NCBI RefSeq assembly: GCF_001435845.1
Contig: NZ_CM003596.1
Span: forward strand, 1,984,001-2,048,000
DNA from: Psychrobacter sp. P11G3
Lineage (GTDB): Bacteria > Pseudomonadota > Gammaproteobacteria > Pseudomonadales > Moraxellaceae
Reading direction: 5' to 3'
DNA length: 64,000 nt
Shown here: one piece after another, positions 1,052-7,826 of the stretch
Layout: every line of letters starts with the position of its first letter
Position numbering within the stretch: the first letter of the stretch is position 1
The notes under the pieces: generated by a model
Databases searched by the model: none
What the model saw: the letters and a program-made list of their open reading frames with translations, nothing else
What the model was told of the DNA's origin: nothing
Position numbers and translations under genes: made by a program

Positions 1052-2332
1052 TCACTTTGTACGTACTGTGGTTTTAATCATCCCAAAGCTGGCTATTAAT
1101 AACGCCAGTACCTGCACAAACAATAACAACCATACGGTAAGAGACCACTGCCCTCGCGCATAAGCTATGCCACCCAGCCAGGCCCCTAGCGTACCGCCTG
1201 TATAGTAGCCCATATAATATAGACCCGATGCTAATGAGCGGCCTTTTTTGACATTGACAGCTATGTAGCTGATGGTCGCCGACTGCGTGATAAATACACC
1301 AGACGACATAATGGCCAGTCCTATAATCACCCCCCATAATGGCGTGACCAAAGTCAATAATACTCCGGCCATAGATACGACGATAGCCACCCGTACGGTA
1401 CGCGCCGATCCAAATCGGCGTAGCAATGTCGTAGATAATGGCGTGATAATAACACCAAGCAAATATACTGCAAAAATATTGGCGAGCGCACCAGTACCAA
1501 GCTCATAAGGCTTATCTGCCAAATGTAAATTGATAAAAGTGAAGCAGCCTACAAGGGAGAACAGCACGCAAGCGCCAAGCAGACAAGCTGTCACCACATA
1601 GCGGTTGGTGACATGCTCACCTAGCGTCTGTATCGCTGAGCGAAAATTAGGATTAGCCACAAAGTGACGAGACGATGGTAGCATCTTGCCAACCCATATT
1701 GCCCCCAGTAGCGTCATCGCCGTCATCACATAGTAGCCATGACGCCAGCCAATCAGCTCATGTAAATGACCCAACAAGAACCGACCCATAAAGCCGCCAA
1801 GCACGCATCCTGACACATAAAAGGACATCAGCTCAGTCATCGCCCGGCCCTCAAACTCCTCACCGATATAGGCAATTGTCACCACCGTAATACCCGGCAC
1901 CGACAGTCCTTGCATAAAACGCCAAATGCCGACCCATTCAATGCTCGAGCTCTGGGCAATGAGCGCTGTTGGTATCGCTAAAAACAATAAAGCGCCAACG
2001 ATAAACGACTTGCGCCCGACTGCATCTGAGAGCATACCCAGAAATGGTGACATAATCGCAATGGCCAACACAGTAGCACCAACGATCATACCAGCCTGTA
2101 CTTCGGTCGCAGCAAAGTCCACCATCATGACTGGTAGCACCGCCTGAATAGAGTACACTTGCAAAAAAGCAAACATACCTATCAGGCCAATTGTGAGCTT
2201 CAATATCCACGACGTTGAATGATTGGAGGTGACTGGTGGCACAGCTGTTATATCTTGGATCTGATCTTTAGAATTATTCACAGGGGATCTGACTATATTG
2301 GTTATACCATGACTGTAAATGATAACCGTCAC
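1052..2332 (-). CDS. MFS transporter, YnfM/arabinose-efflux-like
   Basis: A 426-residue inner-membrane protein of the major facilitator superfamily with about 12 hydrophobic segments after a polar N-terminal tail of roughly 40 residues. The MFS motif between TM2 and TM3 is visible as GMLSDAVGRK (around residues 98-107). The opening of the core (a SIQAVLPVMMVDF-type segment) resembles the YnfM group of drug/metabolite exporters. The substrate cannot be read from sequence. It is transcribed towards the acyl-CoA ligase but separated from it by about 215 bp, and divergent from the secreted hydrolase gene. The first ATG gives an unusually long polar leader, so a start further in is possible. Confidence 0.85.
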   Translation of the reverse strand: MTVIIYSHGITNIVRSPVNNSKDQIQDITAVPPVTSNHSTSWILKLTIGLIGMFAFLQVYSIQAVLPVMMVDFAATEVQAGMIVGATVLAIAIMSPFLGMLSDAVGRKSFIVGALLFLAIPTALIAQSSSIEWVGIWRFMQGLSVPGITVVTIAYIGEEFEGRAMTELMSFYVSGCVLGGFMGRFLLGHLHELIGWRHGYYVMTAMTLLGAIWVGKMLPSSRHFVANPNFRSAIQTLGEHVTNRYVVTACLLGACVLFSLVGCFTFINLHLADKPYELGTGALANIFAVYLLGVIITPLSTTLLRRFGSARTVRVAIVVSMAGVLLTLVTPLWGVIIGLAIMSSGVFITQSATISYIAVNVKKGRSLASGLYYMGYYTGGTLGAWLGGIAYARGQWSLTVWLLLFVQVLALLIASFGMIKTTVRTK

Positions 2333-2766: not shown

Positions 2767-3711
2767 ATGATGAAAAATATGGTGCTTTCAAAACTTATTA
2801 TTGTGATGAGTACATTGGTTTTCTCTACGATGGCTGTAGCAGAAATAACTGTGTCCGAGACTAGCGTTAAAGATCTCAGTCCAGTTGGATCAACACTCGA
2901 CGCTACAAACTCACTAGCGGCAGTAGACTGTATAAAGGATGATGCTATCACTGCTACTGAGCTCACTAAAACACGCGATAACGGTCCGTTTTCTGTCAGT
3001 ACCAAGCACGTGAGTCGCCAATCAGCCAATGGCTTTGGTGGCGGTACCATACATTATCCAACGGATGCTGCTAACTGTGGTCTGCTAGGTGGTATCGCGG
3101 TGGTGCCAGGTTACGTGTCTTATGAGTCTTCTATCAAATGGTGGGGACCGCGTTTGGCCTCTTGGGGATTTGTCGTTATTACTATCAATACTAGCTCTAT
3201 TTACGATAATCCAGATAGCCGTGCTGAACAATTGAGCGCGGCTCTCGATCATCTCCTCGCTGATAAAACAGTGGGTCATATGATCGATCCAAATCGTTTG
3301 GGCGCGATTGGCTGGTCAATGGGCGGCGGCGGTGCGCTACGATTGGCAACTGAGCGCAGTACGGTGCAAGCCATCATTGCACAAACGCCCTATCACGATA
3401 CGAGCTATGGTACGATGGATACGCCTACTCTATTCATCGCTTGTGAAAATGACCGTATCGCCCCGAATAAAAAATATACCAATACTTTTTATCAAAAAGC
3501 TGACGGTCCAAAAATGAAGGTCGAGATTAACAACGGCAGTCATTTCTGTGCCAGTCATCGTTTTAACGAAAAGCTATTGAGCAAGCCTGCTATCGCATGG
3601 ATGCAGCGTTATATTAATGGTGATACCCGTTTCGATAAATTCTTATGTGGCAATGACAGCTACAAAGACGATACTCGTATCTCAGCCTATGATTACAAAG
3701 ACTGTTTATAA
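2767..3711 (+). CDS. Secreted polyester hydrolase / cutinase-like lipase (PETase family)
   Basis: A 314-residue alpha/beta hydrolase with a signal peptide (cleavage likely after the VAEI-type region near residue 25). It carries the polyesterase/cutinase signature: G182-W183-S184-M185-G186 nucleophile elbow, Asp229 in ACEND, His259 in NGSHFC; Tyr116 (VPGYVSY) and Met185 would form the oxyanion hole. Runs such as SIKWWGPRLAS and FVVITI match Ideonella PETase. From memory it is closest to the lipase/polyester hydrolase of Antarctic Moraxella TA144 (Lip1/Mors1). Predicted disulfides: C226-C261 and C294-C313 as in Ideonella PETase, plus an extra pair C55-C104. The Ideonella W185 position is Tyr209 and S238 is Phe260. 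No strong Shine-Dalgarno is seen. Natural substrate is unknown; triglyceride or cutin-like esters are as plausible as plastics. Confidence 0.93.
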   Translation: MMKNMVLSKLIIVMSTLVFSTMAVAEITVSETSVKDLSPVGSTLDATNSLAAVDCIKDDAITATELTKTRDNGPFSVSTKHVSRQSANGFGGGTIHYPTDAANCGLLGGIAVVPGYVSYESSIKWWGPRLASWGFVVITINTSSIYDNPDSRAEQLSAALDHLLADKTVGHMIDPNRLGAIGWSMGGGGALRLATERSTVQAIIAQTPYHDTSYGTMDTPTLFIACENDRIAPNKKYTNTFYQKADGPKMKVEINNGSHFCASHRFNEKLLSKPAIAWMQRYINGDTRFDKFLCGNDSYKDDTRISAYDYKDCL

Positions 3712-3965: not shown

Positions 3966-4021
3966 GGGTGCTACAAACAAGTAAAACGATTGAATAAATG
4001 AACGATTAAGGAGCAATGTTG

Positions 4022-4768
4022 ATGACTGATGAAATGTATGATTTAGGTGCAGGATTTTGGAGTATTCGAGGATCATTTATCAAAAACGGTATCCTTGATA
4101 TCGGTGTCCAATGTGCGCTCATAAGACTATCATCAGAGCGATTTATCTTTTTAGATAGCTATACATTAACTGGTGATGTGCGTCAGCAAGTCATGGCATT
4201 GACCAATGATGGTCAAAATGTCGAAGCCGTCCTCAATGTTCATCCGTTTCATACAGTACACTGTGCTCAAATGGCAGAAGATTTTCCGCAAGCAATATTC
4301 TATGGGAGTAGCCGACATCCAGAGCAGGTACCTGAAGTCAATTGGGCAAATGATTTGGTAGAAAGCGATGCCGTTGCTGTGCGCTACCCTGAACTCAAAT
4401 TCTCTATACCTCAAGGCATTCATTACATCTCACCTGACGAGACAGTTCATGCCAGCTCATTATTGGTCTATCATCCTGCCAGCCAAAGCATTTATGTCGA
4501 TGATACCTTTGAGATACCCCCTTCCAAGTTAATAAATGCCGTGCAGCCTAACCTAGGCTTACACCCTACTACCAAAAAAGCGCTCAAAGATGAGCCAAAT
4601 GCAGCTAAGCATTATTGTGATTGGGCAGTAGAGCTGGCAAGCGAGTGGCGTGATGGTCGAAATTTTTGCGGTGCGCATTCGGGATTGGTTATATTTGATA
4701 AAGGTCAATTTGAGACAGCACTTATCTCAGCGATTGATCTGGCTCGCCCTGAGCTTGGGAAAGCTTAA
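4022..4768 (+). CDS. Metallo-beta-lactamase-like protein, copy 1
   Basis: A 248-residue cytosolic protein of unassigned function. The start at 4022 is preferred over 4016 because AAGGAG lies 8 nt upstream and the protein then aligns end to end with its neighbour. Features resembling an MBL fold: a strand with LDSY near residue 48, a degenerate metal motif NVHPFHTVHC (near residue 76) in place of HxHxDH, a late Asp in YVDDTF, and a C-terminal His in CGAHSG. The H-x2-H-x2-H spacing suggests altered or lost metal chemistry. The next gene (4901) is a paralogue with roughly 70% identity by eye. No partner gene indicates a pathway. Confidence 0.7.
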   Translation: MTDEMYDLGAGFWSIRGSFIKNGILDIGVQCALIRLSSERFIFLDSYTLTGDVRQQVMALTNDGQNVEAVLNVHPFHTVHCAQMAEDFPQAIFYGSSRHPEQVPEVNWANDLVESDAVAVRYPELKFSIPQGIHYISPDETVHASSLLVYHPASQSIYVDDTFEIPPSKLINAVQPNLGLHPTTKKALKDEPNAAKHYCDWAVELASEWRDGRNFCGAHSGLVIFDKGQFETALISAIDLARPELGKA

Positions 4769-4900: not shown

Positions 4901-5647
4901 ATGACTGATCACATTCATGATTTAGGCGCAGGATTTTGGAACATACGCGGAACATTCCGTCTCGGTGGCGTGCTAAATATCGGCACTCAATGCTCGTTGG
5001 TCAAGCTACCATCAGGGAAATTTATCTTTTTGGACAGTTACGCCCTAACGGGTGATGTTCGAGATGAGGTTATGGCACTCACTAACAATGGTCAAGATGT
5101 CGAAGCGGTGCTGAACGTACATCCGTTTCATACAGTCAGCTGTGCTCAAATGGCCAAAGACTTCCCGCAAGCGACATTTTATGGCAGTAGTCGTCACCAT
5201 AAAAAAGTACCAGAAATCGATTGGGCAGATGACTTGGTAGAAAGTGACGCAGTCGCTGCACGCTATCCTGAGCTTAAGTTTTCAATGTCAGAGGGCATTT
5301 ATTATATCTCGCCCAATGAGATGATCCATGCAGGTTCTTTATTGGCTTATCATCCTGCTAGTCAAAGCTTGCATGTAGATGATACTTTTATGAGTCCACC
5401 AATTAAGTTATTAGAAGCTGTATTGCCTGAGCTGATATTGCACCCCACGACCAAAAAAGCACTGAAAAACGAACCAAACGCTGGCGCGCAATACTGCGAC
5501 TGGGCGACCAATTTGGCTCATGAATGGCGTGACGTACGCAATTTCTGCGCTGCGCATTCTTATCTTGTTCAGTTCAAAAAAGGTGGGTTTGAGAAAGCTC
5601 TGGTGAAAGCCGTTGAGAAAGCACGTCCAAAACTAGAAAACGCCTAA
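4901..5647 (+). CDS. Metallo-beta-lactamase-like protein, copy 2
   Basis: A 248-residue paralogue of the preceding gene, colinear from MTDHIHDLGAGFW to the C-terminal ARPKLENA. It keeps the same putative metal-site residues (HPFHTVSC, HVDDTF, CAAHSY), but the third His of the first motif is replaced by Ser (HTVSC against HTVHC). A GAGGAA Shine-Dalgarno lies 8 nt upstream of the ATG. The 132-bp gap from copy 1 carries no clear terminator, so co-transcription is possible. A strong terminator follows at 5684. Function is unknown; the pair looks like a local duplication that has begun to diverge. Confidence 0.7.
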   Translation: MTDHIHDLGAGFWNIRGTFRLGGVLNIGTQCSLVKLPSGKFIFLDSYALTGDVRDEVMALTNNGQDVEAVLNVHPFHTVSCAQMAKDFPQATFYGSSRHHKKVPEIDWADDLVESDAVAARYPELKFSMSEGIYYISPNEMIHAGSLLAYHPASQSLHVDDTFMSPPIKLLEAVLPELILHPTTKKALKNEPNAGAQYCDWATNLAHEWRDVRNFCAAHSYLVQFKKGGFEKALVKAVEKARPKLENA

Positions 5648-5772: not shown

Positions 5773-6288
5773 TTACCGAAACAGCAATGTCGCAAGCTCA
5801 TCTTCGTTGTTCAGAATATCTGCTAATGTATAACGCTCAAGCACATTGATAAATGCGGTGAGTGCTTCAAAAAACACGCTTTTTAGCTGGCAGGCTGGAC
5901 TAATCACACAGCCTAGTGATTTATTCTTTTCTTCCTCAATGAATGTCACTGGTAAATCCGTCTGATGATCGCCCTGCTCACTATCATTATGAGACACTGG
6001 TACGGCAAAGCACTCAACCAAATTAAAATCAGGCTCTATCTGTTTGATCAATACGCCCAAATTTATATCTTTAGGTGCACGTGCCAATCGTATGCCACCG
6101 TTTTTGCCGCGCACACTTTCTATATAACCCAGCTGACCCAGCTGATGAATAATCTTGGTCAAATGACTTTTAGAAATGCCATAGCTGTCAGCAATATCGC
6201 TAATATTAGCCAATAGTGATGGATCTGGTCTCACAGCCAAATAAATCAATGAGCGTAGCGCGTAGTCACTATAATTGGTCAGTCGCAT
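5773..6288 (-). CDS. nsrR: Rrf2-family nitric-oxide-sensing repressor NsrR
   Basis: A 171-residue Rrf2-family regulator that should hold a nitric-oxide-sensitive Fe-S cluster and repress NO-defence genes. The N-terminal winged helix reads MRLTNYSDYALRSLIYLA, with recognition helix ISKSHLTKIIHQL and the wing VRGKNGGIRLA that is typical of NsrR. Three cysteines are present: C93, C127 and C133. The C127-x5-C133 spacing matches E. coli NsrR, but about 29 acidic residues are inserted between the first and second cysteines. AGGAG lies 9 nt upstream of the ATG. nnrS lies upstream on the same strand and carries an NsrR-like operator, which supports the assignment. Confidence 0.9.
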   Translation of the reverse strand: MRLTNYSDYALRSLIYLAVRPDPSLLANISDIADSYGISKSHLTKIIHQLGQLGYIESVRGKNGGIRLARAPKDINLGVLIKQIEPDFNLVECFAVPVSHNDSEQGDHQTDLPVTFIEEEKNKSLGCVISPACQLKSVFFEALTAFINVLERYTLADILNNEDELATLLFR

Positions 6289-6572: not shown

Positions 6573-7826
6573 TTAACCAAATAAACCATCAGGCCGAGGA
6601 CGTGCCAGCATTGGCAGATAACTGATGCAAAATAGCACAAAACACGCTATCCAAGCACTTTGCGCCACCATAATCCATATTAGGTAATGACTCATATCTA
6701 CTAGCGGTAGTAGTACACGACTGATAAATACCAATACCATCAAGCCATACATAACGTTTACCGTTTTTGACGGTTGATGAATGCTGCGACCCGTATGTCC
6801 CAAAGATACTCTAGTCATCATGGCTAACGTCATCATACCAACACCAGAAATCGCTAGTCCATGCATAGCGATGCTGTGCGGATAACCGAGCCAAGGTTGT
6901 AATGCGTATAGTAAAAAACTCAAACACATGCCTAAAAACGCAATATACAACGACCAAAGTAATGGTTTCTGCCAAATACCGTGATGATACCACCCTATCA
7001 GACGTACAATATTAATCACTGCTACACCGAGCGCGGTAACCGTCAAGGGATACTGGTTTGGATAAAATACATCACTAATAAAAAAGGCGAAGAAAAATCC
7101 TAAGCTTGCGATATCTTGTGTCTTACTATTACGTAGTTTAATGGGTTCTGACGTTTCCATATCTATACTAAGACCACGTTCAATAAAAAATGGCACCACA
7201 CGTCGGCCAATTGTCAGAACCAGCCCGATAATCAAATAGAACCCACTATAAATGCCTATCTTGGTTGTGTTCATATCAGCATTGATAATTCCCCAATAGC
7301 AAAGTCCGTTGCCAAATGTCAGCAGGGCCAGTTTTGCCAAGATACCCATTTGCTTATATTGTTTAACTTGCCATACCGCTCGACATATTACATATGCCAT
7401 CGAGGCGACAAATACTACATCAAAAAGGGCTGCTATATATAGCCAAGATATACTATGATCTATGAGCGTTATGCCAAGCCCAAAACCTAACCAGCTCAGA
7501 CGTGCCAGCAACCAACAGACAAAGATACCTAGCAACTTATAGCCATGCGGCATCATAACCCCTGTCCATGTTTTGACCGCGGTTAGCAAAAACCCGGCTA
7601 CCACTGCCAAGGCATAACCATACACCATTTCATGGCTATGCCAGTATAACGGGTTCAAAACCTGTGCATCGATATCCGTGTGACCAGTAAACACAAACGC
7701 CCATAGCAACATCGTTACTACGGAAAATAGCGCAGCAGCACTAAAAAATATGCGAAAGCTCAAATTAAGGATAGGATGCGGAGATCTTGGTGGTTTGCTA
7801 GGTAACTTGATAGAGTGCATAGCCAT
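6573..7826 (-). CDS. nnrS: NnrS family heme-copper membrane protein (NO stress)
   Basis: A 417-residue polytopic protein with about 12 membrane segments, of the NnrS family linked to nitric-oxide tolerance. Family features include the N-terminal HPILNLSFRIFFSAAALF segment, the conserved YWHSHEMVYGYALAVVAGFLLTA stretch (split here only by description) with histidines proposed as heme/copper ligands, and the C-terminal HGLAISGVGMMTLAMMTRVSLGHTGR region. A near-perfect NsrR operator lies 36-54 bp upstream of the ATG. No nitric oxide reductase or flavohemoglobin gene is in the window, so NnrS and NsrR form a minimal NO-response pair here. A start 6 nt downstream at 7820 is also possible. Confidence 0.92.
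   Translation of the reverse strand: MAMHSIKLPSKPPRSPHPILNLSFRIFFSAAALFSVVTMLLWAFVFTGHTDIDAQVLNPLYWHSHEMVYGYALAVVAGFLLTAVKTWTGVMMPHGYKLLGIFVCWLLARLSWLGFGLGITLIDHSISWLYIAALFDVVFVASMAYVICRAVWQVKQYKQMGILAKLALLTFGNGLCYWGIINADMNTTKIGIYSGFYLIIGLVLTIGRRVVPFFIERGLSIDMETSEPIKLRNSKTQDIASLGFFFAFFISDVFYPNQYPLTVTALGVAVINIVRLIGWYHHGIWQKPLLWSLYIAFLGMCLSFLLYALQPWLGYPHSIAMHGLAISGVGMMTLAMMTRVSLGHTGRSIHQPSKTVNVMYGLMVLVFISRVLLPLVDMSHYLIWIMVAQSAWIACFVLFCISYLPMLARPRPDGLFG

What the first reader, a model, noticed from the sequence alone, without database searches (positions are those of the whole stretch)
2767..3711. Secreted PETase-family polyester hydrolase homologue in a cold-adapted bacterium
Seen: signal peptide, GWSMG elbow (S184), D229 in ACEND, H259 before FCA, conserved SIKWWGPRLAS, and cysteine pairs matching both disulfides of Ideonella PETase. 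Known: the Antarctic Moraxella enzyme (Lip1/Mors1) of this type hydrolyses polyesters at moderate temperature. Inference: this is a cold-active polyester hydrolase.
Basis: partly seen in the sequence, partly recalled or inferred. Interest (0 to 1): 0.85.

Follow-up and report, generated by a model that had tools for sequence, protein, structure and literature searches.

The report
Psychrobacter PETase-like secreted esterase
This is an intact gene for a probably secreted ester-cutting enzyme, closely related to an Antarctic enzyme already known to act weakly on polyester plastics; it looks like an ordinary, long-standing gene of its bacterial genus rather than a new plastic-eating invention.

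Summary
In detail: window 2767-3711 (+) encodes an intact 314-aa protein with an apparent signal peptide and a full PETase-family domain (PF12740, E 4e-85). Its best solved relative is 8SPK, "Antarctic PET-degrading enzyme" (Mors1, Moraxella TA144), with 201 of 261 aligned residues identical. The site is type IIa (F260, not Ser), with Mors1's Tyr (Y209) in place of IsPETase Trp185. The organism is a Psychrobacter: 50 of 105 genomes of the genus carry a strong copy, under purifying selection, at one conserved locus in 27 of 28 titled loci. It is an inherited genus trait, not a recent plastic adaptation. Weak polyesterase activity at moderate temperature is the likely in-vitro property, inferred from Mors1/MoPE, whose PET yield was almost 300-fold below LCC-ICCG; natural esters are the likely substrate. 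New member of a known kind; interest low. A side observation, relatives with Ser at the IsPETase Ser238 place, may be worth more.

The parts
2767..3711 (+). PETase-family (PF12740) probably secreted alpha/beta hydrolase, 314 aa
2767..2841 (+). probable Sec signal peptide, residues 1-25 (AVA|E), read by eye from sequence and hydropathy
   Evidence: no predictor run
2923..3705 (+). residues 53-313, the part that aligns with the sequence of the Mors1 structure 8SPK
   Evidence: model superposition
3316..3318 (+). nucleophile S184 in GWSMG
   Evidence: 47 of 47 loci
3451..3453 (+). catalytic D229
   Evidence: 47 of 47 loci
3541..3543 (+). catalytic H259
   Evidence: 47 of 47 loci
3391..3393 (+). 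Y209, at the place of IsPETase Trp185 and Mors1 Tyr214 (subsite I)
   Evidence: 47 of 47 loci
3544..3546 (+). F260, at the place of IsPETase Ser238: type IIa, not IIb
   Evidence: 46 of 47 loci
2929..2931 (+). C55, predicted third bridge with C104 (3076-3078)
3442..3444 (+). C226, predicted active-site bridge with C261 (3547-3549)
3646..3648 (+). C294, predicted C-terminal bridge with C313 (3703-3705)
1052..2332 (-). MFS transporter, divergent upstream neighbour, conserved at the locus
4016..4768 (+). downstream neighbour of unknown family, first of two paralogues
4901..5647 (+). downstream neighbour of unknown family, second paralogue

Best explanation
A Sec-exported serine hydrolase of the PETase/cutinase-like family (PF12740), type IIa, very probably orthologous to Mors1/Lip1. 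It is exported, folds as an alpha/beta hydrolase held by three disulfides, and cleaves esters through Ser184-His259-Asp229, with Y116 and M185 at the oxyanion hole. In vitro it should cleave short triglycerides, PCL and, weakly, amorphous PET at moderate temperature. In nature it most likely works on natural esters (lipids or biopolyesters); plastic hydrolysis is a side activity. Shown: sequence, family, residues, homology, conservation. Inferred: export, bridges, activity, temperature range, natural substrate.
Confidence: 0.85

Rival explanations
1. It is purely a lipase/esterase for natural lipids, with no measurable polyester activity.
For: Mors1 is recorded in UniProt as a triacylglycerol lipase (P19833, as told in PMC12224614). 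The gene is an inherited locus of the genus, and Tyr replaces the subsite I Trp. Public databases call several relatives dienelactone hydrolase family protein. A plain lipase has nearly the same fold score (1jfr).
Against: Mors1, 77% identical over the aligned part and with the same Tyr, cleaves PCL and PET.
Confidence: 0.12
2. It is a recently selected plastic-degrading enzyme that lets this bacterium grow on PET.
For: PETase-family membership; Psychrobacter is reported among cold plastic biofilms (review passages).
Against: 50 of 105 genomes of the genus carry it; one conserved locus; synonymous divergence above 1.6 between deeper copies with low dN/dS; no MHETase-family gene found in the genome. 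Genes for terephthalate or ethylene glycol use were not searched.
Confidence: 0.02
3. It works with the two downstream paralogues and the MFS transporter as one ester-utilisation module.
For: MFS gene and unknown protein are each kept in 27 of 28 titled loci and each in 19 of 20 shorter loci, the window included.
Against: The MFS gene points the other way and the gap to the next gene is about 300 bases. P. frigidicola has the hydrolase without these neighbours within 6 kb (L036). It was not tested whether the neighbours stand together in genomes without the hydrolase; shared order among species of one genus is expected anyway.
Confidence: 0.08

Closest known systems
Mors1 / Lip1 / MoPE, Moraxella sp. 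TA144 (PDB 8SPK)
   Same: 201 of 261 aligned residues identical; triad, oxyanion residues, Y209, F260 and the three cysteine pairs; its nearest Psychrobacter relatives in the tree sit at the same locus as the window gene (L013, L019; L037)
   Different: 60 of 261 aligned residues; N148 for Asp, A262 for Pro, H264 for Tyr near the active site; a different branch within the genus
PET6, Vibrio gazogenes (PDB 7Z6B)
   Same: told to share features of type IIa enzymes (review); Trp before the nucleophile and Phe after the catalytic His
   Different: 125 of 233 aligned residues identical; Trp at the Y209 place; no Cys at the C104 place in the stretch aligned
IsPETase, Ideonella sakaiensis (PDB 6EQD)
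   Same: triad, two cysteine pairs, Trp159; fold
   Different: 113 of 279 aligned residues identical; its Ser238 is Phe here and its Trp185 is Tyr; the active-site loop is one residue shorter here; no counterpart of C55/C104

Membership tests
Pfam PF12740 (PETase, PET hydrolase-like) | score above the curated cut-off of 28 bits | tested here: met
   285.8 bits, E 4e-85, residues 70-308
PETase-like serine hydrolases (Joo 2018, passages) | Ser-His-Asp triad with the GxSxG motif | tested here: met
   S184, H259, D229 align with S160, H237, D206
Type II PETases (Joo 2018, passages) | additional disulfide beside the active site (C203-C239) | tested here: met
   C226 and C261 align; the bond itself is inferred
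Type II PETases (Joo 2018, passages) | extended beta8-alpha6 loop | tested here: met
   no gap against Mors1, one residue shorter than IsPETase; Mors1 has 15 residues there against 13 in LCC (review); no type I sequence was aligned here
Type IIa | Phe or Tyr at the Ser238 place | tested here: met
   F260
Type IIb (IsPETase-like) | Ser at position 238 | tested here: not met
   F260
M5-PETase motif (PMC12224614; passages and section 19) | Met after the nucleophile plus DxDxR(Y)xxFxC | tested here: inconclusive
   Met is present, but the string as printed fails here and in Mors1, although the paper counts the Moraxella TA144 protein as M5; the full pattern was not seen
PET hydrolase (EC 3.1.1.101) | releases MHET/TPA from PET | not testable with these tools
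   needs an assay
NCBIfam NF051441, BHET hydrolase equivalog | score above 520 bits | tested here: not met
   237.2 bits

The most novel reading that the evidence does not exclude
The Psychrobacter locus encodes a genus-specific lineage of triple-disulfide polyesterases evolved for a natural cold-environment polyester, with the unknown downstream proteins taking part; PET activity in Mors1 would be a by-product of that role, and this protein would keep useful activity below 10 C.
Probability: 0.1. Interest if true: 0.5.

Novelty: new member of a known kind. Interest (0 to 1): 0.2.

Why it matters
It adds a natural series of Mors1 orthologues, with varying active-site loop residues at one locus, that could be used to see what sets temperature optimum and polyester activity. 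It also shows that this gene type is an inherited trait of about half of the sampled genomes of one genus, so finding it in a genome or metagenome is by itself no sign of selection by plastic.

Tried and rejected
A search for tannase/MHETase-family genes (PF07519) in the own genome found none, but no control genome rang either. The same search over 145 genomes of the order, the own one again among them, rang in 24 of 145 and not in the own, so the absence is believable. Genes for terephthalate or ethylene glycol use were not searched.

Recent gain was considered and rejected: conserved locus, 50 of 105 genomes, gene GC 0.451 against 0.43 for the window. A second copy in the own genome was looked for: one PF12740 match only. 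In the family sample 45 of 249 genomes matched at E 1e-30, in 1 of 16 genera.

The AlphaFold model is moderate; its 48 rows are all 65% or more identical to the window protein. Loci from the genome search were not given to structure prediction, since its rule does not list them. Model coordinates were not at hand, so the cleft was not measured. Promoter-like and terminator-like sites were no more frequent than in shuffles. The first downstream neighbour found nothing in the PDB up to E 1; in Pfam up to E 5 the first found nothing and the second only DUF4336 at E 0.12.

Rows dropped: searches left out L021 and L022 (second fetches of the window's own genome) and L038 (broken draft copy, 245 aa). 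The 47 loci include the window (L001) and some identical copies. In one search, 69 of 105 genomes match at E 0.001; 19 of these have a best match of only 9.2e-7 or worse and were not counted; the 50 counted (by eye) have best E 4.2e-64 or lower, agreeing with the tally. One of the 50 (G049) has its gene in two pieces.

Full report
What is there. The ORF at window 2767-3711 (+) encodes 314 residues without interruption. The protein scores 285.8 bits against Pfam PF12740 (cut-off 28). It scores 237.2 bits against the BHET hydrolase equivalog NF051441, whose cut-off is 520. In the PDB its best relative by far is 8SPK (E 3.6e-141; next 1.4e-74), titled 'Crystal structure of Antarctic PET-degrading enzyme'. 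A review (passages read, PMC11509169) describes Mors1 from Moraxella sp. TA144: found by similarity to IsPETase, clearing PCL with optimum 25 C, Tm 52 C, 1.98% weight loss of amorphous PET film in 6 days at 25 C, crystal structure with three disulfides, Tyr214 and Asp153 in subsite I. The original paper was not held. That 8SPK is Mors1 rests on its title, the molecule name 'Lipase 1' and the residue numbering (offset 5), not on a direct statement read.

Active site. In an alignment with 8SPK, PET6 (7Z6B), Ple628 (7VMD) and IsPETase the window protein has Y116, W183, S184, M185, D229, I231 and H259 at the places of IsPETase Y87, W159, S160, M161, D206, I208 and H237. F260 stands at the place of Ser238, which by the scheme of Joo et al. 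2018 (passages read, PMC5785972) makes it type IIa. Y209 stands for Trp185, as in Mors1. N148 stands for Gln119 (Asp in Mors1). Aligned residues identical: 201 of 261 to Mors1, 125 of 233 to PET6, 114 of 234 to Ple628 and 113 of 279 to IsPETase.

Distribution and age. The own genome (3.28 Mb, 5 contigs) has one copy. In the genus, 50 of 105 genomes have a strong copy (best E 4.2e-64 or lower, counted by eye; 50 of 105 at E 1e-30). In the family sample 45 of 249 genomes match at E 1e-30, in one of 16 genera. In the order sample 18 of 293 genomes carry a PF12740 gene at E 1e-40. The genus is Psychrobacter by the titles of all 28 loci found in genome contigs, which are 62-95% identical in their best segment. 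In 27 of these 28 loci an MFS gene and at least one copy of an unknown 250-aa protein flank the hydrolase (P. frigidicola, L036, is the exception). In the shorter loci L001-L020 (L001 is the window), 19 of 20 show the MFS gene and 19 of 20 the unknown protein. dN/dS is 0.07-0.36 in 10 comparisons, two of them with identical sequences; the highest value is with one of the closest copies, and dS is above 1.6, close to saturation, in the five deeper ones. S184, D229, H259, C55, C104, C226, C261, C294 and Y209 are kept in 47 of 47 loci, F260 in 46 of 47 and C313 in 45 of 47 as aligned.

Tree. With 51 rows, 44 of them different, the window groups with P. immobilis Liston1000 and other Psychrobacter copies (10 rows, support 100/97). 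Mors1 falls inside the Psychrobacter set, with P. glaciei and two unnamed loci of the genus (4 rows, 100/95; the inner fork is weak, 94/48). The tree program warned that the long outgroup branches may be joined falsely. The nearest relatives of Mors1 have the same neighbours as the window gene (L013, L019; L037). So Mors1 and the window protein are very probably orthologues, and Moraxella TA144 may itself be a Psychrobacter (inference from one gene).

Function. The direct inference is a secreted, three-disulfide, type IIa hydrolase with Mors1-like side activity on polyesters. That activity is small. In one comparison the Moraxella polyesterase MoPE released almost 300-fold less product from PET powder than LCC-ICCG, which reached about 450 mg per mg of enzyme; enzymes taken as unable to degrade PET released at most 0.54 (PMC11187625, passages read). 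On a small fluorogenic PET analogue, however, MoPE had the highest turnover of the three PET enzymes (same call). MoPE and Mors1 are taken as one protein because PMC12224614 ties the TA144 lipase to the paper cited for MoPE. Absence of MHETase-family genes and the inherited locus argue against PET as the natural substrate. Natural lipids or biopolyesters are the likely targets, but nothing here says which.

Literature. Searches with Psychrobacter and PETase, polyester hydrolase, cutinase, polycaprolactone, polyethylene terephthalate, type IIb and Moraxellaceae showed 20 of 208, 15 of 197 and 10 of 188 papers. Among those shown no title reports a characterised Psychrobacter PF12740 enzyme. A cold-active lipase of Psychrobacter SC65A.3 is in the listing (PMC11547725); its family was not checked. 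Most subscription journals are not held. PMC12224614 (passages and section 19) reports Moraxellaceae among the taxa transcribing such genes in the ocean and counts the TA144 protein in its M5 set.

Side observation. A second copy in one Psychrobacter genome (L010, G019; 61-71% identical to the other copies of the genus) has Ser at the IsPETase Ser238 place. Of 135 collected proteins 7 do (P0122, P0123, P0124, P0125, P0126, P0129 and P0135, which is L010 itself; P0122 is 99% identical to it), all with HSCANSG as in IsPETase. P0126 and P0129, whose organisms are not named, also carry Trp at the Trp185 place and Gln at the Gln119 place, together with the C55/C104 pair. In Joo et al. 2018 all four type IIb enzymes came from Burkholderiales (passage). 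Whether this has been reported since was looked for only in the listings. The 135 proteins are the 120 best of each of two searches, duplicates counted once, plus the two queries, and so lean to close relatives.

Verdict.

Noticed in passing
L010:1486-2370 (-), genome G019; proteins P0122-P0126, P0129: A sister group with Ser at the IsPETase Ser238 place and HSCANSG; P0126 and P0129 (organisms not named) also have the Trp185 and Gln119 equivalents plus the third cysteine pair. L010 lies in a Psychrobacter genome, so a type IIb-like Ser occurs outside Burkholderiales.
   Followed up: partly
window 4016-4768 and 4901-5647 (+): Two paralogous proteins of about 250 aa (70% identical) with no Pfam or NCBIfam family at 1e-3; at least one copy beside the hydrolase in 27 of 28 titled loci.
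   Followed up: partly
L013, L019, L037 and PDB 8SPK: Mors1 of 'Moraxella sp. TA144' falls inside the Psychrobacter set of the tree, so the strain may be a Psychrobacter.
   Followed up: partly
window 5773-6288 (-) and 6573-7826 (-): An Rrf2-family regulator whose best NCBIfam match is NsrR (136.9 bits, below the cut-off of 182) beside an NnrS gene, suggesting a nitric-oxide response pair.
   Followed up: no
window 3616-3648 (residues 284-294): The published M5 string DxDxR(Y)xxFxC as printed is matched by 0 of 47 loci and not by Mors1, although its authors count the TA144 protein as M5; the printed form seems stricter than the one they used.
   Followed up: partly
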